Of a DNA stretch of 38,825 nucleotides, positions 542-38,707 are shown piece after piece. Below the pieces are notes generated by a model. The model saw nothing but the letters and a program-made list of their open reading frames with translations, was not told the DNA's origin and ran no database searches. How positions within the stretch are numbered: position 1 is the first letter of the stretch; every line of letters begins with the position of its first letter. The DNA comes from Thermoanaerobaculia bacterium. GTDB taxonomy: Bacteria > Acidobacteriota > Thermoanaerobaculia > Multivoradales > JAHZIX01. The position numbers were made by a program, and so were the translations under genes. The stretch lies in contig JALXFE010000510.1 in the NCBI GenBank assembly GCA_027069135.1, positions 1-38,825 of the forward strand, written 5' to 3'.

Positions 542-1916
542 CATCGAGCATCAGAGACCAATTCTGGATGTAGTAGAGGTCGTATTGGATCCGCTTTTTG
601 ATCGAGGTATTTCCTCGCCAGCCATGGACCTGGGCCCAGCCGGTGATTCCCGCCTTGACCCGGTGCCGGATCATGTACTGCGGGATCTTGTGCTTGAACT
701 CCTGCACGAAAGCCGGTCGCTCCGGTCGTGGACCGACGATGGACATATCGCCCTTGAGGACGTTCCAGAGTTGGGGCAGCTCATCGATGGAGGTTCGCCG
801 CAGGAACGATCCGAAGGCGGTGCGTCGGGGGTCGTCTTTGACCGCCCAGACGGGGCCCGTCGAAGCCTCGGCGTTGATGCGCATCGAGCGCAGTTTGTGG
901 ATCATGAACCGCTTGCCGTCCAAGCCCATGCGCTCCTGGCTGTAGAAGATGGGGCCTCGGTCTCCGAACCAGATCATCGCGGCGACGATGGGAAAGAAAG
1001 GGAGCAGAGCGATCATCGCAGCGCAGGCGATGGCGATGTCCATCCCCCGCTTGACCATGCTGTGCCAGCCTTCCATCGGGACCTGCGATAGATTGATGAC
1101 CGGCGTTCCGTCAAGATCTTCCAAGGTGGCGTTGAGCGTGGCGTATTGGAGGATATCGGGCACCAGCTTGACCTCGACGCATTCACTGGCGAAGCGCTCC
1201 AAGAGGCGGAGCATCTTGCGATGGGCTTCTAAGGGCAAGGCGACAAACACCTGGTCGAAGTGCTGCTCTTCGAGGAGCTGATCGAGTTTCTTGAGAGGGC
1301 CCAGCACCGGAACACCGTAGAAGCTCTTATCCGCCTTGCCGGGATCATCGTCGAGAAATCCGACGATTTCGAAGCCGAGATCCTGGTGGGAGAGCATTTT
1401 CTGGGTGACTTCCTTGCCGAGGGCTCCAGCGCCGATCACCAACAAGCGTTGGATGCCGTACCCCTTTCGGCGGCGTCTGCGAACAGCTTCCCGGATCAGC
1501 ATGCGGGCTAGGGTCACAGCGGCCAGCGAGGTGAGGGAGAACATGGCCAGAAAGACCCGGCTGTAGGTGAAGTACTCGGTGCTGTCGGGAGCGATCGTAG
1601 GACGGTAGCCGGCGGTAAAAGCGAGGAGCAGGACCGTCGCCAGGACGATGGCCAGCAGAATGGTCAGCGCTTCGTCGACTCGGCTGCGAGCCCGGCGCAT
1701 CTGGTAGAGACCGTGGAAGTAGAAAACGACAGGCCAAGATAGAAGGATGACGGGCAGTAGGGGAAGGTAGGCACTGAATTCTGCCGGATCTTTGATCAGA
1801 GGGATGACCTGGATTTGGAAACGGAGGGCCCAGGCGGCAAAGAAGGCCGCGGTCAGGGCCAGGAGGTCGCCGGCCAGGTAAGCAGCTGCTGTCGGACGGA
1901 ACTTATGTTTCATCAC
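489..1916 (-). CDS. Exopolysaccharide priming enzyme: WcaJ-type undecaprenyl-phosphate sugar-1-phosphate transferase
   Basis: Membrane enzyme that moves a hexose-1-phosphate from a nucleotide sugar to undecaprenyl phosphate, the first membrane step of exopolysaccharide assembly. The 475 residues show four N-terminal membrane segments (about 10-31, 48-70, 83-104, 114-140), a Rossmann-like domain (VIGAGALGKEV, about 160-170), a fifth hydrophobic segment near 290-315 and the catalytic bacterial sugar transferase domain. In the catalytic domain are the Asp-Glu pair D378/E379 (SIDELPQLWNVLKGD), GPRPER at 395-400 and KAGITGWAQVHGWRG at 421-435. Length and order are normal for WcaJ-like proteins. 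The start is GTG at 1916 with GGGGGAGA 7 bases upstream; an ATG directly follows it. It is the last gene of a four-gene minus-strand EPS operon, 23 bases after the preceding glycosyltransferase. The sugar transferred cannot be told from sequence. Confidence 0.95.
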   Translation of the reverse strand: MMKHKFRPTAAAYLAGDLLALTAAFFAAWALRFQIQVIPLIKDPAEFSAYLPLLPVILLSWPVVFYFHGLYQMRRARSRVDEALTILLAIVLATVLLLAFTAGYRPTIAPDSTEYFTYSRVFLAMFSLTSLAAVTLARMLIREAVRRRRRKGYGIQRLLVIGAGALGKEVTQKMLSHQDLGFEIVGFLDDDPGKADKSFYGVPVLGPLKKLDQLLEEQHFDQVFVALPLEAHRKMLRLLERFASECVEVKLVPDILQYATLNATLEDLDGTPVINLSQVPMEGWHSMVKRGMDIAIACAAMIALLPFFPIVAAMIWFGDRGPIFYSQERMGLDGKRFMIHKLRSMRINAEASTGPVWAVKDDPRRTAFGSFLRRTSIDELPQLWNVLKGDMSIVGPRPERPAFVQEFKHKIPQYMIRHRVKAGITGWAQVHGWRGNTSIKKRIQYDLYYIQNWSLMLDVKILWMTLRSGLWHNAH

Positions 1917-1939
1917 GAGATGGTCTCCCCCAAGGCCCC

Positions 1940-3106
1940 TCAGGACCCTTTGGCCAGTATCGCTTCGACCCGTCGGACGAAGCTCGTGGTAGAGAAACTT
2001 TCAGCTTTGGCTCTCAAGTTCAAGATATTGAATCTGATCCGGAGCGCCCTGTCAATCGCCTGAAGAAGTCCGCGGATGCCATCGGCTCCGGAATAGAGGA
2101 CTCCGTGTACTCCATCCTGCACGATATCGACGACTCCGCCGCGCCCGTTGGCGACCACCGGGGTGCCGCAAGCTAAGGCCTCCACCGGGGTGATGCCGAA
2201 GTCTTCGACGCCCGGCTGGAGCAGGAGGCGAGCTCCCCGATAGAGGCGACGAAGCTCCTCAGACCCCACCCTTCCCAGGAATTGAGTCCCCGCCCCGGCC
2301 AATTTCTCGAGCCGAGACGCTTCCGGGCCTTCGCCGACGATTTTCAACGGATATCCGCCTTCCTCGCAGGCCTGGATGGCGATGTCCAGGCGCTTGTAGG
2401 GCGCCAGAGCAGAAACCATGAGCAGGTAGTCGTCGCCGGATGCGCCGCGATGCTCTCCTTTGTCTACGATGGGCTCGGCTGTAGCGTTCGGACCACCCGA
2501 GGTATCCGGTCTAAAGAATTCGACGTCTACCGGAGGCGGGACGACCGTGGCCGACACGCCATAATATCGCCTTAACCGCTCCGCGACAAAATTGGAGTTG
2601 GCCAGGAAGTGGTCGACCCGGTGGCTGGAGACCACGTCCCAGGTCCGCAATCCGGTGAGAATCAGGCCGCGCAGCCGAGCGACGAGGCCTCTCCTGCGGG
2701 GGAAGTAGGCCCTTTCCTGATCCCAGGCGTAGCGCATAGGGGTGTGGCAGTAGCAGAAATGCCTGCTCCCCGGAGCCGGCAGGATGCCCTTGGCGACGCA
2801 ATGGCTCGTGCTGAAGACGATGTCGTAGCCGGAGAGGTCGAGGTCCTCGATGGCAGCTGGAAAGAACGGGAGGTATCGGCGGTAATGACGGCGGATCCCC
2901 GGAGCCCGTTGCAGAAAACTGGTGTGGATCGGATGAGATTCAAGCTCACGACTCACCGAGCCCGGGAAGTGAAAGAGGGTGAAGATGGGGGCTTCCGGAA
3001 AGAGTCCGGCGAGAGTCTCCAAGACCTTTTCCCCGCCGCGCATTCCCGTCAGCCAATCATGGACCAGCGCCACGCGGTGGCCGACCGGTGGTTCCGGCGG
3101 GGTCAT
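1940..3106 (-). CDS. Family-4 glycosyltransferase (WbaZ-like)
   Basis: Retaining GT-B glycosyltransferase expected to add a sugar to the lipid-linked EPS repeat at the inner face of the membrane. N-terminal acceptor domain begins VALVHDWLTGMRGGEKVLE, a signature I associate with WbaZ-like mannosyltransferases. The C-terminal GT4 domain has YKRLD (237-241) and the EX7E pair E301/E309 in EDFGITPVEALACGTPVV. Length 388 is usual. The ATG start overlaps the stop of the upstream glycosyltransferase by four bases (ATGA), indicating translational coupling. A hydrophilic insert around residues 200-226 separates the two GT-B halves. The mannose assignment is by family resemblance only. Confidence 0.9.
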   Translation of the reverse strand: MTPPEPPVGHRVALVHDWLTGMRGGEKVLETLAGLFPEAPIFTLFHFPGSVSRELESHPIHTSFLQRAPGIRRHYRRYLPFFPAAIEDLDLSGYDIVFSTSHCVAKGILPAPGSRHFCYCHTPMRYAWDQERAYFPRRRGLVARLRGLILTGLRTWDVVSSHRVDHFLANSNFVAERLRRYYGVSATVVPPPVDVEFFRPDTSGGPNATAEPIVDKGEHRGASGDDYLLMVSALAPYKRLDIAIQACEEGGYPLKIVGEGPEASRLEKLAGAGTQFLGRVGSEELRRLYRGARLLLQPGVEDFGITPVEALACGTPVVANGRGGVVDIVQDGVHGVLYSGADGIRGLLQAIDRALRIRFNILNLRAKAESFSTTSFVRRVEAILAKGS

Positions 3107-15799: not shown

Positions 15800-16435
15800 A
15801 TGGGCTTGGTGAAGATTTGTGGGATTACACGGGTCGAAGACGCTCAGTTGGCCATCGATTTGGGCGCGGATCTTCTCGGGCTCAATTTTTGGCCCCGGAG
15901 TTCGCGGTGTATTTCCGTAGACCAGGCCCGACGAGTTTCCGAGGTGGTGGATGGACGAGTCCCGCTGGTGGGCGTTTTCGTCAATTCGCCGCCGCCGGAC
16001 GTCCGGCGGATCGAGGCGGCGGTGGGGTTGAATCTCTTGCAATTCCACGGCGATGAAGATCCGCAGGAGGTCCTCGCCTGGGGAGGTCGGGGGATTCGGG
16101 TGCTGCGCCTGGAGGCGCCACCCGGGCGGGAGCTCCTGGCAGAGGCCGCCGATTGCTGGGGAATTCTCTTTGAGATCCGTCATGCAGAGTACGGCGGTAC
16201 GGGGAGGAGCTGGGATTACTCGCTCTTGGCCGGCGTCGAGCGAGCCCGCAGCGACCAGCCCTGGTTGGTCGCGGGGGGCATCGGTCCAGAGAATGCTCGC
16301 CGAGCCCTGGCGAGGAGCGGCGCCGACGGAGTGGATGTATGTTCCGGTGTGGAATCCGCGCCGGGGATCAAGGATCCTCGGCTCATGGAACGCTTGATCA
16401 TGGAGGTCCGAAATGGCGAAAGCCTCATTGCTTAA
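15800..16435 (+). CDS. trpF: Phosphoribosylanthranilate isomerase
   Basis: Amadori isomerase of tryptophan synthesis, 211 residues. Begins [15 protein letters not shown] with the catalytic cysteine in KICGIT, continues [27 protein letters not shown] and ends with AGGIGPENA and [14 protein letters not shown], the phosphate-binding end of the barrel. The frame stays open upstream but overlaps trpC; the ATG at 15800 gives the standard N-terminus. Its last 23 bases overlap trpB, whose ribosome-binding site (GGAGG) lies inside trpF. Confidence 0.95.
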
Positions 16436-17687
16436 GGAACGGGCCGAGGCCGATCGGCTCGGTCGTTTCGGTCCCTACGGGGGCCGCTACGTCCCCGAGA
16501 CCCTGATGGCTCCTCTGGACGAATTGGCCAAGGCCTACGATCGCCATCGTCGGCGCCGTGCTTTTCGGTGCCGCCTGGCGGGTCTGCATCGGGATTATTC
16601 CGGCCGCCCGACGCCGCTCTACCTGGCCGAGAGACTTTCCGAGCAGCTGGGTGGAGCGCGGGTGTATTTCAAGCGGGAAGATCTTCTCCACACCGGGGCT
16701 CATAAGATCAACAACGCCATCGGTCAAGCCCTATTGACTCGGGAAATGGGCAAGGAGCGGGTGATCGCCGAGACCGGCGCCGGCCAGCATGGGGTAGCAA
16801 CAGCGACCGCTGCCGCCCTGCTGGGGTTGGAATGTCGAGTCTATATGGGCACCGAGGATATGCGCCGCCAACGGCTCAACGTGTACCGGATGCAGCTTTT
16901 GGGGGCGGAGGTGGCAGCGGTAGATTCCGGGAGCCGAACCCTGAAGGACGCCATCAACGAGGCCCTTCGAGACTGGGTCACCAATGTCCGCACCACGCAT
17001 TATATTTTGGGGTCCGTGCTGGGCCCGGATCCCTTTCCCCGCATGGTGCGGGATTTCCATAGCGTCATCGGGGAGGAAGCGGCGAAGCAGCTCAAGCGTC
17101 AGGCCAAGCGAGCTTATCCGGACGCCGCCATCGCTTGCGTGGGGGGCGGCAGCAACGCCATCGGATTGTTCTCTGCGTTTCTCGACGAGCCTCGAACCCG
17201 TCTCATCGGCGTAGAAGCCGGGGGTCGGGGGCCCGGTCCGGGAGACCATGCCGCCCGCTTCGACGGCGGACGCCTGGGAGTTCTTCACGGCACCCGCACT
17301 TTCCTGCTTCAGGACGAAGACGGCCAGGTTCAGGGCACCCATTCCATTTCCGCCGGGTTGGATTACCCCGCGGTCGGTCCGGAGCACGCCTTTCTGCGGG
17401 ATAAGGGGCGGATCGAGTACACCCGGGTCGGCGACGACGAAGCTCTCGAGGCCTTTCATCTTTTCTCCGAGACGGAAGGGATCCTACCGGCTCTGGAGAC
17501 GGCCCACGCCATCGCCGAGGCGGTGCGCCGGGCCCCCCGTTTGCCCAAGGAGAAGATTCTTCTGGTGAATCTCTCGGGGAGAGGCGACAAGGATGTCGAG
17601 ACGGTCTTGGCGGAGGATGAACGCCGCCGGGAAGCCGACCCCGATCCAGCCCCGGCGGGCCCCCGCCTCCATGGAGATCCCTCATGA
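16413..17687 (+). CDS. trpB: Tryptophan synthase beta chain
   Basis: PLP enzyme condensing indole with serine, partner of TrpA. The 424 residues show [35 protein letters not shown] with the PLP lysine Lys98, [19 protein letters not shown], the PLP phosphate loop GGGSNAIG and LSGRGDKD. The extra C-terminal tail of about 20 residues is Pro/Asp/Ala rich and probably disordered. It is a TrpB1-type chain by its motifs. GGAGG six bases before the ATG supports the start. ATGA overlap with trpA. Confidence 0.97.
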
Positions 17688-18484
17688 GCGCCATCACAGA
17701 TGTATTTGCCCGTTGCCGGCGGGAGAAGCGGGCGGCCTTCATCCCGTACATCACCGCGGGTGATCCCAACTTGGAGACCACGGCGGCGCTGCTGCCGGCC
17801 CTGGACCGGGGAGGAGCGGACTTGATCGAGCTGGGGATTCCTTTCAGCGACCCCATCGCCGACGGTCCCGCCAATCAACGGGCAGCCACTCGCGCCCTCG
17901 ACGCCGGGACGAAGCTTTCGGGAATTTTCGAGGTGATTTCCCGATGCCGGGCGGAGGTCGAGGCGCCGATCCTCCTCTTCACGTACTTCAATCCTATCCA
18001 TGCGCGGGGGGTGGAGCGGTTCGCAGAGCAGGCGGCAGCCTCCGGCGTCGATGGCGTCCTATGCCTCGATTTGCCCCCGGAAGAGGCTCGGGAATCCTAT
18101 CTGCCGGCCCTCCGGAACCACGGCCTCGACACGGTTTTCCTGCTGGCCCCTACCAGCACGAAGCCCCGCATCAAGGCCGTCGCGGAGGTCTCCTCCGGCT
18201 TTATTTATTATGTGTCTCGCACCGGCGTCACGGGATCCCACGAGCCCCTTCCCAAGGAGCTTGCCAAGGAAGTGAAGGCGCTGCGTCGGCGGGTCAAGTT
18301 GCCGGTGGCGGTGGGTTTCGGCATTTCATCGCCGGAGCAGGTCGCCGCCGTCGCCAAGGTCGCGGACGCCGTCGTGGTCGGGAGCGCCCTCGTTCGGCTC
18401 GTGGAGGACGGGGGGATGAGCGAAGATTTGCCGCAGACCTTGGAAGACCGGGTGCGGGAGCTTACGGCTCCCCTGCGGAGGTAA
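17684..18484 (+). CDS. trpA: Tryptophan synthase alpha chain
   Basis: Cleaves indole-3-glycerol phosphate and channels indole to TrpB. The 266 residues include [29 protein letters not shown] with catalytic Glu49 and Asp60 (same numbers as the well-studied enterobacterial enzyme), [24 protein letters not shown] and the phosphate loop GFGISSPEQ. Last biosynthetic gene of the operon; only four bases separate it from the esterase gene. Confidence 0.97.
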
Positions 18485-32355: not shown

Positions 32356-33348
32356 ATGAGTGAGGACTGCCAAATCTACCTTCCAACGGAGTTTCAAGGT
32401 CCGCTACCTTCTGAGGTCGAAGACGAAACGCTTGGAGAGATGGACTACTCCAAGGCTATGGCTCGGGTACGTGCTTGCGTAGAGCATCGGGTCCAGAGGG
32501 TCCAAGAAGAGGCCCGGGAAGCGAGTGCGAGGCTCCGAGAGTTATTGCGGCAACCTCATGCCCGACGCCGGTGGATGGTTCGAAACAGCGCCCGGTACCG
32601 TAGTTGGTTCGTTTGTGACCGACTCTTGGAACATTGCTCTCGAATCCCTTGGGATAGTCCGAGAGAGGCCTTGGAGTTGACGCAGCTCGCCTTGAAGATG
32701 ACCGAGAAGCTGGATCCGGAGCAGCACGGCGGTGGCCCGATCGGTGACCTAAAGAGCTCCGCCGTCGCCCAGGCCGGCAATTGTTTCCGCCTGATGGGCC
32801 GAAAAAAGGAAGCTTGGAATTGTCTCGACCTCGCCCGGAGGAATGCCGAGGCGGGATCTGGGGATCAACTCCTTGCGGCCCGCATTCTCTGTTTGGAGTC
32901 CCTGCTCCTGGTGGACGAAGGGCGGGTTGGCGAGGCTCTGCGCAGGTTCGATCAGGCCCAGAAGATGTTCTCCCAGGCCGGCGACGAGGCGGGGGTAGGG
33001 AAGATCCTGGCCCTTCGTGGCAGTCTGTTCCTGCGTTGCGGAGATCCTGCCGGGGCCGCCTGGGCGCTACGCCGAGCGGAACGTCATATCGACGCGGCAC
33101 AGCATCCCCACCTCGACCTTCGGATTCGGCAGGATCTGGTGGCCTGCTCCCTCGCTTCCCAGGATTTCTTGCGGGCGGATCGGCAGATCTTCGCGGCGAA
33201 GGCTCGCTTCGGTCGGCTTTCTGAAGTTGAGCGGGGGCGGTATGCCTCGTGGTTTCGTTCGACTCTCGAGAAGGGGCTGGGAGCGCAGGAGGCAGAGGCG
33301 TTGAGGACCCGGGAGCTCGCGGCGGGAACCCCACCTTTCTGGAGCTAA
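32356..33348 (+). CDS. TPR-like helical protein of unknown function
   Basis: Cytosolic all-helical protein of 330 residues, no signal or membrane segment. An N-terminal charged helix (about 30-70) is followed by RNSARYRSWFVCDRLLEHC, then helix pairs of TPR character: DSPREALELTQLALKMTEKL, QAGNCFRLMGRKKEAWNCLDLA, EGRVGEALRRFDQAQKMF and GDPAGAAWALRRAERHI. I have the impression that this N-terminal block recurs in Acidobacteriota proteins, some beside helix-turn-helix regulators, but this is unchecked. No DNA-binding domain is visible. It lies 95 bases upstream of lhr and may share its transcript. Confidence 0.75.
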   Translation: MSEDCQIYLPTEFQGPLPSEVEDETLGEMDYSKAMARVRACVEHRVQRVQEEAREASARLRELLRQPHARRRWMVRNSARYRSWFVCDRLLEHCSRIPWDSPREALELTQLALKMTEKLDPEQHGGGPIGDLKSSAVAQAGNCFRLMGRKKEAWNCLDLARRNAEAGSGDQLLAARILCLESLLLVDEGRVGEALRRFDQAQKMFSQAGDEAGVGKILALRGSLFLRCGDPAGAAWALRRAERHIDAAQHPHLDLRIRQDLVACSLASQDFLRADRQIFAAKARFGRLSEVERGRYASWFRSTLEKGLGAQEAEALRTRELAAGTPPFWS

Positions 33349-33443: not shown

Positions 33444-36400
33444 ATGAATCCCTCTGCCGATCCCCTCTCCGTCTTTGATCCTCTGGTCCAAACGTGGTTC
33501 CGGCAGCGCTTTGAGAATGCCACCGAGATTCAGCAGCGCTCCTGGCCTTCCATCGCCGCGTCCAAGAACGTCCTTCTGACGGCTCCCACCGGCAGCGGCA
33601 AGACGCTGACGGCCTTCCTCTGGGCGCTGAATCAATTACTCGTCGGCGCCTGGCCCGGAGGTAGCGTACGGGTTCTCTACATTTCTCCCTTGAAAGCTCT
33701 GAACTACGATATCGAGCGTAATCTCGCGGGCCCCCTGCGAGAGCTCCAGGCGGTCTTCGAGAAGGCCGGCCGACCGGCGCCGGAGGTGCGGGTGCTGACC
33801 CGGAGCGGCGATACTCCGAGCCGGGACCGGCAACGCATGCTGCGGCGACCGCCGGAGATCCTGATCACGACGCCGGAAAGCCTCAATATTCTGCTGACTT
33901 CTCGGGGTGGGCGAAGACTGTTGGGAGAGCTTCAAACCGTGATTCTCGACGAGATCCACGCGGTGGCCGCGGGGAAACGGGGAGCGCACCTGATGAGCGC
34001 CGTCGACCGTCTCGTTCCCCTATCCGGCGAATTTCAACGCATCGCGATCTCCGCCACCATTCGGCCTCTCGAGCGGATCGCCGAGATGGTCGGGGGATAT
34101 ATCGCCGAACATTCCGGGGAGAGCGTCCACTACCGCCGCCGACCGATGGAGATTTTTCGGGCCCGGGGCCGAAAGAAGTATCGGATCAAGGTCGCAGCGA
34201 TCCCGGCGCCGGCCGAGCCCGCGGTCCCGGGGGACGATCGGGACGTCTCGGCCTCTCCGGCGGACACCCTGTGGTCCGCCTTCGCAGATCGCTTTAGGCG
34301 CATCATCCGAGCGAACCGTTCCACCCTCTTATTTGCCAATAGCCGACGAACGACCGAGAAAGTAACTCGGTTGATCAACGAGGGGTTGCCTCGGGAGCTG
34401 GCCTACTCGCACCACGGCTCACTCTCGAGAGAGATCCGTTCGGTGGTCGAAGAGAGATTGAAGAAGGGGGAGCTGGCAGCGATCGTGGCGACGAATTCCC
34501 TGGAGCTGGGAATCGATATCGGAAACCTGGATGAAGTGGTGTTGATCCAGACGCCGCCGACGGTTTCCTCTGCCGTTCAGCGCATCGGCCGGTCCGGACA
34601 CGGGGTGGGCGAAACCAGCCGGTCTCAGATTTTCCCGACCCACGGCCGGGACATTCTGGACGCAGCGGTCGTCGCCAAATGTGTTCTCGATGAAGATATC
34701 GAGGAGGTTCAGCCGGTCGAGTGTCCCCTCGACGTTCTTGCTCAGGTCGTGGTGTCCATGGTGGCAGCGGAGCCCTGGCCTATAGAGGAGCTCTATGAGT
34801 TCCTTAGAACGAGCTATCCCTTTCGGCAGCTCAAGCGGCGCCAACTGGACCTTGTGCTCGAAATGCTGGCCGGTCGGTACGCAGATAGCCGAGTGCGGGA
34901 GTTGCGTCCAAGGATTTCCATCGATCGGGTAGAGGGCATCCTTCGGCCCCGAGACGGCATCGCCCGCTTGATCTACTCGAGCGGCGGCACCATACCGGAT
35001 CGGGGCTATTACGCCCTCCGCCTCGAGGGGACCAAGGCGAAGCTTGGAGAGCTCGACGAAGAGTTCGTGTGGGAACGCTCCGTCTCCGATACGTTCACTT
35101 TGGGAGCCCAAAGTTGGCGCATCCAACGGATCACCCACAATGACGTGCTGGTGACCCCGGCACGCAGCTCGGCGAATCTGGCCCCGTTTTGGAAAGGGGA
35201 CGAGAGGGATCGGGATTTCCATCTCAGCTCGAAGCTTGGGGCTTTTCTACGTTGGTCGGATCCCCGTCTCGACGATCCGGCCCTCAAGGAAGAGCTTCAG
35301 CGGAGCCATTGTCTGGAGAAGGCTGCGGCGGAGGAGCTCATGAGCTTCCTCCGTTTGCAGAGGGAGGTCACCGGCTGTCCCTTACCCCACGACCGGCATC
35401 TGGTCGTGGAGCATTACAGCGATCCCTTTGGGGGAGGTCGTCGACCGCAGATTCTGATCCACACGTTATGGGGAGGGAGGGTCAACCGGCCCCTGAGTAT
35501 CGCACTGGCGCAAGCTATTGAAGAGACGGTGGGCGGCTCGGCGGAGGTTCTCCACAACAACGACTCCATCAATATCGTGCTCCCGGAGGAGGGAATGCCG
35601 GGGGTTGATTTCCTGAGTCTGGTCGACGGTGGGAATCTGGAAAAATGGCTGCGAAGGCGCCTCGAGAGCACCGGCTTTTTCGGGGCCCGGTTCCGTCAGA
35701 ACGCCGCCCGCGCCCTGTTGCTCCCGCGAACGTCCTTCAAGCGAAGAATGCCGCTTTGGCTCAACCGGCTGCGTTCCAAAAAGCTCCTTCAGGCGGTCAG
35801 CCGCTATGAGGATTTCCCCCTCCTGGCGGAGACCTGGAGGACTTGCCTCAAGGACGATTTCGATCTGGAGAACCTCTTTCGCCGATTGGCGGCGCTGCAA
35901 GCGGGGGAGCTGCGGGTCAGCGAGGTTCATACGACGGTCCCTTCTCCCTTTGCTGCGGATCTGATCTTTAAGCAAACCAACCGCTACATGTACGAGGACG
36001 ACACGCCTCAGTCCGGGCGAGAGTCCAAGCTAAGGGGAGATCTACTCCGAGAGTTGGTGTTTTCGAGCCAGCTGCGCCCGCGGTTGCCCTCGAAATTGGT
36101 TCGAACCCTGGAGGGCAAGCTTCAGCGTCTCGCGCCGGGATACGCGCCTCGCCCCGGGTTGGATCTCGAAGAATGGGTCCGGGAACGCCTCCTCTTGAGC
36201 CCCTCCGAGTGGGGTGGGCTCTTGTCCGCGGTGGCTCGAGATCACAGCGTCGAAGAGAGCGAGGCCATGGCGTCGGTGGCCGCGAAACTCCTTTGGGTCT
36301 CTCTGCCCCGAGGCCGCGAGGTCGTGACCCACGTCGAAGAGGTGCTCCGGCTTCGGGCCGCCTTCGGAGGGTCCGGGGAGACCCTCGACCCCCGTCCCCT

Positions 36401-37985
36401 GGATGCCTCGAAGGACCAGGTGTTGGCGGATCTTCGAGGATGGCTCGAGGAGTCCCCGCAAGAGGGTGCCGGGAACTTCTCGAAGACCACCGCAGAAGAG
36501 CCCTCGACGGCCTTCGATCCCTTGGCCGAGGCGCTGGCTCAGTGGCTCAGTTTCTACGGTCCCCTACCTCGCCGCCGCCTCGGGGAGGTCTTGGGACTAG
36601 GGGATGAGGCTTTGGATCGCACCTTGGCGGCCCTGAGCGAGGACCGGCGCATCGTCGTCGACGAGCTGACGGAGGGTTCCGCCGCGGGGGAACTCGAGAT
36701 TTGCGACAGTGAGAATCTGGAGCGCCTCCTGCGGATGGCCCGCGCCGAGGCTCGTCCCAATTTCGAGGCCCTGCCACTCCCGCAGTTGCCGCTCTTTCTC
36801 GCGGCCCACCAGGGATTGGGCTCAGCGGGTACCGGCGTCGAGGGCCTGCAAGCTAACTTGGAGAGATTGCTTCTGCTGCCCCTCCCCGCCGAGGCCTGGG
36901 AGGCAGAGATCCTACCGGCTCGTCTGGCTCCTTATTATCCTGCCTGGTTGGACGAAGTCCTCCGAGCTTCCGAGCTCCGGTGGATGGGGAGCGGACGCCA
37001 GAAGCTCACCTTCTACTTCCCGTCGGATCCGGTGGATTGGAAAGCCCCGGACGCGACCTCCGAGCTCTCTCCGGATCGTGTCTTCCCGGACGATCGCGGC
37101 CGCTACTCCTTCGAAGATCTTGTGGAAGAGGCCGGCGTGGGGGCGCAGAAGCTCAACGAGGAGCTGTGGCGATGGGTTTGGGAGGGGCGGGTCAGCAGCG
37201 ATTCGTTTCAGGTCCTTCGGCAGGGGCTCGCCTCGAAGTTCTCCCGGGTCCGGTGGCCAACCTCAGCGGGTGGAGGAGCTCGCGGTGTGCGGCGAAATCG
37301 CTGGCAATCCCCCAAGAAGCTCGCTGGCCGTTGGTATCGTCGGTCGGAGGGAGGCAACGGCGAGCTCGACGCCTTGGAACTCGAAGAGTTGAACAAGGCA
37401 CGCGCCAGACTTCTTTTGGATCGCTACGGCGTCCTTTTTCGAGAACTGACCTCGAGGGAGCTTCCGGCCTTCCAATGGCGGAGCGTCTTTCGGGCCCTGC
37501 GGCTGATGGAGCTCTCCGGGGAAGTGCTCTCCGGGCAGTTCTTTGAAGGCCTCTCGGGTTTGCAATTCGCCACTCACGAGGCCTTCCGGCAGCTTAGGAA
37601 AGGAGTCCCCGCCGATCGAATTTTTTGGCTCTCCGCCCGGGATCCGGCGTCGGTCTGCGGTCTTGGGCTCGAGGGCTTGAGCGAAGGTCTGCCGGCCCGC
37701 CGGTCCGGGAACTTTCTTGTCTATCATGGGCAGCGTCTGGTGGTCGTGGCCCAGGCCAAAGGTCGCCATCTGGAGATCCGAGTGCCCCCGGACCATCCGG
37801 AGCTGGCCACGTATTTCGAGTTCTTGAGGGTTCTGGTCAGCCGCGAGGCTCAGCCTTTGAAGTACGTCGAAATTCGGCAGGTTAACGGCGAATCGGTGTT
37901 CGACAGTCCCTACTATGATGCGCTGCATCATCTCGCGAGCGGAACTCGGGAAGCGCGAGGTCTGCGAATTCGGAAGCGCTATTGA
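33444..37985 (+). CDS. lhr: Large ATP-dependent DNA repair helicase Lhr
   Basis: Superfamily 2, 3'-5' DNA/RNA-DNA helicase of 1513 residues, the full-length Lhr size. Motif Q region FENATEIQQRSWPSIAA, Walker A TAPTGSGKT (Lys53), DEIH at 169-172, SATIRPLERIAEMVGG, motif IV-VI blocks (LLFANSRRTTEKVTRLIN, ATNSLELGIDIGNLDEV, QRIGRSGHG). After the RecA pair come the winged-helix and Lhr-core beta domain (to about 860) and a long C-terminal region with further winged-helix repeats. Lhr helicases are linked to repair of crosslinks and alkylation, and the C-terminal region of E. coli Lhr is reported to have uracil glycosylase activity. No clear Shine-Dalgarno site precedes the ATG, but the N-terminus is canonical. 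Confidence 0.95.
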   Translation: MNPSADPLSVFDPLVQTWFRQRFENATEIQQRSWPSIAASKNVLLTAPTGSGKTLTAFLWALNQLLVGAWPGGSVRVLYISPLKALNYDIERNLAGPLRELQAVFEKAGRPAPEVRVLTRSGDTPSRDRQRMLRRPPEILITTPESLNILLTSRGGRRLLGELQTVILDEIHAVAAGKRGAHLMSAVDRLVPLSGEFQRIAISATIRPLERIAEMVGGYIAEHSGESVHYRRRPMEIFRARGRKKYRIKVAAIPAPAEPAVPGDDRDVSASPADTLWSAFADRFRRIIRANRSTLLFANSRRTTEKVTRLINEGLPRELAYSHHGSLSREIRSVVEERLKKGELAAIVATNSLELGIDIGNLDEVVLIQTPPTVSSAVQRIGRSGHGVGETSRSQIFPTHGRDILDAAVVAKCVLDEDIEEVQPVECPLDVLAQVVVSMVAAEPWPIEELYEFLRTSYPFRQLKRRQLDLVLEMLAGRYADSRVRELRPRISIDRVEGILRPRDGIARLIYSSGGTIPDRGYYALRLEGTKAKLGELDEEFVWERSVSDTFTLGAQSWRIQRITHNDVLVTPARSSANLAPFWKGDERDRDFHLSSKLGAFLRWSDPRLDDPALKEELQRSHCLEKAAAEELMSFLRLQREVTGCPLPHDRHLVVEHYSDPFGGGRRPQILIHTLWGGRVNRPLSIALAQAIEETVGGSAEVLHNNDSINIVLPEEGMPGVDFLSLVDGGNLEKWLRRRLESTGFFGARFRQNAARALLLPRTSFKRRMPLWLNRLRSKKLLQAVSRYEDFPLLAETWRTCLKDDFDLENLFRRLAALQAGELRVSEVHTTVPSPFAADLIFKQTNRYMYEDDTPQSGRESKLRGDLLRELVFSSQLRPRLPSKLVRTLEGKLQRLAPGYAPRPGLDLEEWVRERLLLSPSEWGGLLSAVARDHSVEESEAMASVAAKLLWVSLPRGREVVTHVEEVLRLRAAFGGSGETLDPRPLDASKDQVLADLRGWLEESPQEGAGNFSKTTAEEPSTAFDPLAEALAQWLSFYGPLPRRRLGEVLGLGDEALDRTLAALSEDRRIVVDELTEGSAAGELEICDSENLERLLRMARAEARPNFEALPLPQLPLFLAAHQGLGSAGTGVEGLQANLERLLLLPLPAEAWEAEILPARLAPYYPAWLDEVLRASELRWMGSGRQKLTFYFPSDPVDWKAPDATSELSPDRVFPDDRGRYSFEDLVEEAGVGAQKLNEELWRWVWEGRVSSDSFQVLRQGLASKFSRVRWPTSAGGGARGVRRNRWQSPKKLAGRWYRRSEGGNGELDALELEELNKARARLLLDRYGVLFRELTSRELPAFQWRSVFRALRLMELSGEVLSGQFFEGLSGLQFATHEAFRQLRKGVPADRIFWLSARDPASVCGLGLEGLSEGLPARRSGNFLVYHGQRLVVVAQAKGRHLEIRVPPDHPELATYFEFLRVLVSREAQPLKYVEIRQVNGESVFDSPYYDALHHLASGTREARGLRIRKRY

Positions 37986-37996
37986 AGGAATACGAT

Positions 37997-38707
37997 ATGA
38001 GTCTTTGGCAGATCCATCAGGACCTCTCTCTGGAGCTGAGCTCCCTTTCTTTTGAACAGCCCGTCGCCCTTGTGTACAACCCTTTGGAATATGCAGCGGA
38101 GCCTGCCCGCAGGTATTTTGACCGCTTCGGTCGAGGGCCGAAGGAAGTCGTGCTTTTGGGAATGAACCCGGGACCCTGGGGGATGGTGCAAACCGGTGTG
38201 CCCTTTGGTGAGGTCGGTTTTGCTCGGGATTGGTTGGGCATTGAAGGGGTGGTGGAGAAACCACCCCACGAGCACCCAAAACGTCCCATCGAGGGATTCG
38301 ATTGCCAACGCAGTGAAGTGAGCGGTCGGCGTTTGTGGGGGTGGGCGCGGGACACCTTTGGAGATCCGGAAAGCTTTTTCTCGCGCTTTTTCGTCGGGAA
38401 CTATTGTCCCCTGGCGTTTCTCGAGGCCAGCGGGCGAAATCGGACTCCGGACAAGCTACCGGCGGCGGAGCGCGAAAGCCTTTTCCGGCTCTGCGACCAT
38501 GCCTTGCGCCGTTGGATAGAAGTTCTCGATCCCCGATGGGTGGTGGGTATCGGGAAGTTCGCAGAAACGCGCGCCCGGAGCGCCTTGGGCGATCTTCCGA
38601 TCTCCATCGGCACGATTCTCCATCCCAGTCCGGCCAGCCCGGCGGCAAATCGCGGATGGGTCGAGGCCGTCGAGCGGCAATTTTTCGGCCTGGGGATTGA
38701 TCTGTAG
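37997..38707 (+). CDS. smug1: SMUG1-type uracil-DNA glycosylase
   Basis: Base-excision enzyme removing uracil (and in animals 5-hydroxymethyluracil) from DNA. The 236 residues follow animal SMUG1 closely: GMNPGPWGMVQTGVPFGEV with the catalytic-site Asn57, DWLGIEG, HEHPKRPIEGFDCQRSEVSG, NYCPLAFLEASGRNRTP and the DNA-intercalating region with the catalytic His209 in LHPSPASPAANRGW. ATG 37997 is chosen because AAGGA lies seven bases upstream; a TTG at 37982 would overlap lhr. The ribosome-binding site overlaps the lhr stop, implying coupled expression. The 118 bases after the stop hold no gene and no clear terminator. Confidence 0.95.
   Translation: MSLWQIHQDLSLELSSLSFEQPVALVYNPLEYAAEPARRYFDRFGRGPKEVVLLGMNPGPWGMVQTGVPFGEVGFARDWLGIEGVVEKPPHEHPKRPIEGFDCQRSEVSGRRLWGWARDTFGDPESFFSRFFVGNYCPLAFLEASGRNRTPDKLPAAERESLFRLCDHALRRWIEVLDPRWVVGIGKFAETRARSALGDLPISIGTILHPSPASPAANRGWVEAVERQFFGLGIDL

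What the first reader, a model, noticed from the sequence alone, without database searches (positions are those of the whole stretch)
33444..38707. Lhr helicase translationally coupled to a SMUG1 uracil-DNA glycosylase
The Shine-Dalgarno site of the SMUG1 gene spans the lhr stop codon, and the spacing is 11 bases. In E. coli, Lhr's own C-terminal region is reported to be a uracil glycosylase, so a separate glycosylase encoded as the partner gene suggests a helicase-glycosylase repair unit with the two activities split over two proteins. SMUG1 is best known from animals; a bacterial copy tied to Lhr is a testable system.
Basis: partly seen in the sequence, partly recalled or inferred. Interest (0 to 1): 0.72.

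Follow-up and report, generated by a model that had tools for sequence, protein, structure and literature searches.

The report
Lineage-restricted lhr–SMUG1 repair gene pair
Two ordinary bacterial DNA-repair genes, a large helicase (Lhr) and a uracil-removing enzyme (SMUG1), sit back to back and are probably made from one message, but only in one small bacterial family; elsewhere the same two genes live apart, so a dedicated helicase-glycosylase machine is possible but not indicated.

Summary
A full-length lhr (33444-37985) is followed after 11 bases by a SMUG1 gene (37997-38707), and the AAGGA Shine-Dalgarno starts on the last base of the lhr stop. Both proteins are intact, canonical members of their families. 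The pair occurs in all four genomes held from this family (two genera; Lhr 55-60%, SMUG1 62-67% identical), with junctions of +11, +49, +40 and an ATGA overlap. It is absent from 45 order relatives that have both genes, from all other SMUG1-bearing genomes sampled in the phylum, and from 80 SMUG1 loci of other GTDB genomes. In the same-genus relative the pair lies in a 28-kb collinear block of unrelated genes, so its conservation there proves little. The idea that Lhr's glycosylase was split off onto SMUG1 is not supported: E. coli's catalytic Asp1536 is Arg here, but is also absent in order relatives whose SMUG1 lies elsewhere, and the genome has a second UDG. Bacterial SMUG1 is widespread and structurally solved. 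The nearest precedent is the mycobacterial lhr-nei2 operon. Best reading: a co-transcribed repair pair formed once in this family; cooperation possible but unproven.

The parts
33444..37985 (+). lhr: full-length Lhr helicase (core plus C-terminal winged-helix domains), 1513 aa; Walker A TAPTGSGKT, DEIH box, SAT and QRIGRSGH motifs intact; Arg at the position of E. coli Asp1536
37985..37989 (+). AAGGA Shine-Dalgarno sequence whose first base is the last base of the lhr stop codon; 7 bases to the ATG
37997..38707 (+). SMUG1-type uracil-DNA glycosylase, 236 aa; motifs GMNPGPWGM and HPSPASP intact
32356..33348 (+). TPR-like protein, 95 bases upstream of lhr; homologues upstream of lhr in G297 and G298; possibly on the same transcript
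   Evidence: weak TPR matches in the G297 homologue, none in the window copy

Best explanation
lhr and SMUG1 form a short co-transcribed pair that arose once in this family (class Thermoanaerobaculia, inferred). Shown: adjacency, intact motifs, and family-wide retention with different junctions. Inferred: one mRNA, with SMUG1 translation helped by ribosomes finishing lhr in the genomes with the +11 and ATGA junctions. Inferred from the families: Lhr moves 3'-5' on single-stranded or forked DNA, while SMUG1, as an independent base-excision enzyme, removes uracil and oxidised pyrimidines such as 5-hydroxymethyluracil; co-expression supplies both under the same conditions. No dedicated complex is needed.
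For: Same-strand 11-base junction with the SD over the stop. The pair is kept in 4/4 family genomes although the proteins have diverged to 55-67% identity and the junctions are rebuilt: +11, +49, +40, ATGA overlap. SMUG1 copies of the family fall in one clade (support 0.86, which also holds L060), nested among order sequences, consistent with one origin of the pairing. Both genes exist unlinked in 45 order relatives, so each works without linkage.
Against: No transcript data. The conserved surroundings (28 kb collinear with G297; nitrilase, TPR, lhr, SMUG1, TPR also in G298) could keep the pair together without any selection on it. Junctions of 40 and 49 bases in two genomes weaken obligatory translational coupling.
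Confidence: 0.6

Rival explanations
1. Dedicated helicase-glycosylase repair unit: SMUG1 is recruited or stimulated by Lhr at forks, as a counterpart of the mycobacterial Lhr-Nei2 pair.
For: Precedent: the lhr-nei2 operon, where Nei2 is a 5-hydroxyuracil glycosylase and both genes protect from psoralen-UVA (PMC11323726). E. coli Lhr glycosylase is more active with its helicase domains (PMC10953399). Close junctions kept in the family.
Against: 0 of 45 order relatives with both genes and 0 of 80 SMUG1 loci elsewhere are linked. SMUG1's active-site motifs show no family-specific change.
Confidence: 0.17
2. Hitchhiking: the adjacency is a neutral by-product of a stable gene order in this family and means nothing for function.
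For: 28-kb collinear block with G297 including clpA, aspartoacylase-like, nitrilase-like genes and lhr; the same local order in G298; SMUG1 neighbours elsewhere are a changing mix with no widespread partner.
Against: The tight same-strand junction is retained although the intergenic sequence differs in every genome, including an ATGA overlap.
Confidence: 0.2
3. Division of labour: this Lhr lost a uracil glycosylase activity and the adjacent SMUG1 replaced it.
For: E. coli Asp1536 aligns with Arg.
Against: The Asp is also absent in order relatives whose SMUG1 lies elsewhere, so its absence is independent of the pairing, or the Asp is peculiar to E. coli-like Lhr. The genome has a further UDG at C464:9349.
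Confidence: 0.03

Closest known systems
Mycobacterial lhr-nei2 operon (Warren and Shuman 2024, PMC11323726)
   Same: Lhr gene followed by a small DNA glycosylase gene, presumably expressed together; Nei2 acts on 5-hydroxyuracil, an oxidised pyrimidine (SMUG1s also act on oxidised uracils, general knowledge)
   Different: The glycosylase is Nei-family with AP lyase activity, not SMUG1; lhr-nei2 is damage-induced with tested phenotypes; the present pair is untested and limited to one family
E. coli Lhr with C-terminal uracil glycosylase (Buckley 2023, PMC10953399)
   Same: Full-length Lhr architecture
   Different: The essential Asp1536 is Arg here; E. coli lhr has no glycosylase gene beside it
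Geobacter metallireducens SMUG1 (5H93, 5H98, 5H99)
   Same: Same UDG family, motifs and length alike; E 1e-90
   Different: Its gene neighbourhood was not compared here; the biochemistry of the present copy is unknown

Membership tests
SMUG1 (UDG family 3) | Motif 1 GMNPGP(W/F)GM with catalytic Asn | tested here: met
   GMNPGPWGM at residues 55-63; the Asn is invariant in 126 sequences
SMUG1 (UDG family 3) | Motif 2 with catalytic His (HPSP) | tested here: met
   HPSPASP at 209-215
SMUG1 (UDG family 3) | Full-length similarity to characterised SMUG1 | tested here: met
   5H93 1.3e-90 over 230 residues; also 1OE4 and other SMUG1 entries
SMUG1 (UDG family 3) | Uracil / 5-hydroxymethyluracil excision | not testable with these tools
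   needs an assay
Lhr (full-length bacterial) | Helicase core plus C-terminal winged-helix array | tested here: met
   WH_Lhr, DEAD_assoc, WH3_Lhr, WH4_Lhr over the Pfam cut-offs; 7LHL alignment of core and C-terminus
E. coli-type Lhr uracil glycosylase | Catalytic Asp1536 | tested here: not met
   aligns with Arg in GL-R-IRKRY
lhr-nei2 type helicase-glycosylase operon | Glycosylase gene directly downstream of lhr, same strand | tested here: met
   4 of 4 family genomes
lhr-nei2 type helicase-glycosylase operon | Nei-family glycosylase | tested here: not met
   PF03167 / SMUG1 instead
lhr-nei2 type helicase-glycosylase operon | Joint damage-induced expression and repair phenotype | not testable with these tools
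   needs expression data and mutants

The most novel reading that the evidence does not exclude
In this family Lhr and SMUG1 work as a dedicated pair in which the translocating helicase feeds single-stranded or forked DNA to SMUG1 for removal of uracil or oxidised pyrimidines: an independent evolution of the 'Lhr plus separate glycosylase' arrangement seen in mycobacteria with Nei2.
Probability: 0.15. Interest if true: 0.55.

Novelty: new variant of a known kind. Interest (0 to 1): 0.3.

Why it matters
Lhr-glycosylase operons may have formed more than once (Nei2 in mycobacteria, SMUG1 here). If the two proteins do cooperate, that would suggest Lhr's general role is to present lesions to base-excision enzymes, a testable answer to what Lhr is for. 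On the present evidence it is a lineage-limited operon of two known enzymes.

Tried and rejected
Searched for the pair elsewhere: a phylum sample of about 297 genomes with both queries, 59 close relatives, and 80 SMUG1 loci from GTDB genomes with up to 8 kb flanks (65 of them with at least 1 kb on both sides). Only this family has it. Sensitivity of the loci scan was checked: all 15 Lhr queries hit L001 and nothing else. Looked for a recurrent SMUG1 neighbour: the largest cluster among 99 neighbour ORFs had 4 members. Tested the activity-split idea with the Asp1536 column and rejected it. The promoter/terminator scan found nothing above shuffles. In the literature held, no paper pairs 'Lhr helicase' with SMUG1. 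A scan of genes downstream of lhr in the phylum was of little use, because the loci of more distant Lhr hits were cut inside lhr. Structure prediction was not used: close solved relatives exist and no tool here predicts complexes.

Full report
Observation. Window 33444-37985 encodes a 1513-aa full-length Lhr, and 37997-38707 encodes a 236-aa SMUG1. The junction is 11 bases, with AAGGA beginning on the last base of the lhr stop and 7 bases before the ATG. The helicase motifs and both glycosylase motifs are intact. The finding is correct as described.

Identity of the organism. So the window is most likely from Acidobacteriota, class Thermoanaerobaculia (inference).

Conservation. All four genomes of the window's family have lhr followed by SMUG1 on the same strand: G000 (+11), G297 (+49), G298 (+40) and G299 (ATGA overlap). 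Compared with the window, their Lhr proteins are about 54-60% and their SMUG1 proteins about 62-67% identical, so the pair has been kept over substantial divergence while the junction was rebuilt. In 45 other genomes of the order both genes are present, but on different contigs or hundreds of kilobases apart. None of the other SMUG1-bearing genomes in a phylum sample of 297 is linked. None of 80 SMUG1 loci from GTDB genomes of Planctomycetota, deltaproteobacterial, Acidobacteriota and other groups contains lhr in the fetched flanks, about 1.03 Mb in all. Some contigs are short, so single misses are possible, but not a general pattern.

Meaning of the conservation. Window genes from about 10.4 kb to the end are nearly collinear with one contig of the same-genus genome G297, and the order nitrilase, TPR gene, lhr, SMUG1, TPR gene recurs in G298. 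Unrelated neighbours are therefore conserved too, and the linkage within the genus is weak evidence for function. The members of the other genus, G298 and G299, carry more weight. A SMUG1 tree puts the four family members in one clade, together with L060, which has no lhr in its flank; the clade is nested among order sequences (support 0.86). This is consistent with one origin of the linkage by relocation, not with import of an exotic gene.

The split-activity idea. E. coli Lhr needs Asp1536 for uracil excision (PMC10953399). In the alignment the E. coli end GLDWG meets GLRIRKRY here; Arg, Lys or another non-Asp residue stands there in the order relatives that could be aligned (G246 gave a wrong-frame sequence and is disregarded), including those with an unlinked SMUG1. 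Thus this Lhr probably lacks that activity, but the lack has no connection with the pairing. The genome has one more PF03167 enzyme (C464:9349), whose sequence looks like a family-4 UDG (family assignment by eye). SMUG1 in bacteria is common and the G. metallireducens enzyme is solved (Zhang 2016 and Mi 2009 as cited in PMC12699328).

Closest system. The mycobacterial lhr-nei2 operon joins Lhr with a glycosylase/AP lyase; it is damage-induced, both genes protect from psoralen-UVA, and Nei2 excises 5-hydroxyuracil (PMC11323726). The present pair works, at most, like that one with another glycosylase. It is not a member: the glycosylase family differs, and expression and phenotype are untested.

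Mechanism. Shown: two intact genes in a tight same-strand arrangement retained in one family. Inferred: one transcript; independent base excision by SMUG1; single-strand translocation by Lhr. Not shown: any contact or stimulation. I give 0.6 to a simple co-transcribed pair, 0.2 to neutral linkage, 0.17 to a dedicated unit, 0.03 to replacement of a lost Lhr activity.

Noticed in passing
window 32356-33348; L147:9002-10126 and 16278-17753; L148:9728-10942 and 1736-3061 (minus strand): Homologous TPR-like genes flank the lhr-SMUG1 pair on both sides in the family; not seen within 1.5 kb of lhr or SMUG1 in other families of the order.
   Followed up: partly
L154 about 1330-1800 (G000:C464): A second UDG, family-4-like by eye (GEGPGAQEDRRG), lies directly after a coaBC-like gene.
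   Followed up: partly
L042, L068, L083, L106: In four loci (Desulfobacterales and a related 'proteobacterium Delta 1') homologous genes of about 200 aa follow SMUG1 on the same strand, 4-34 bases downstream; identity not examined.
   Followed up: no
L060:8001-8708: SMUG1 of a metagenome 'Acidobacteria bacterium' groups inside the family clade but has no lhr in 8 kb upstream.
   Followed up: no
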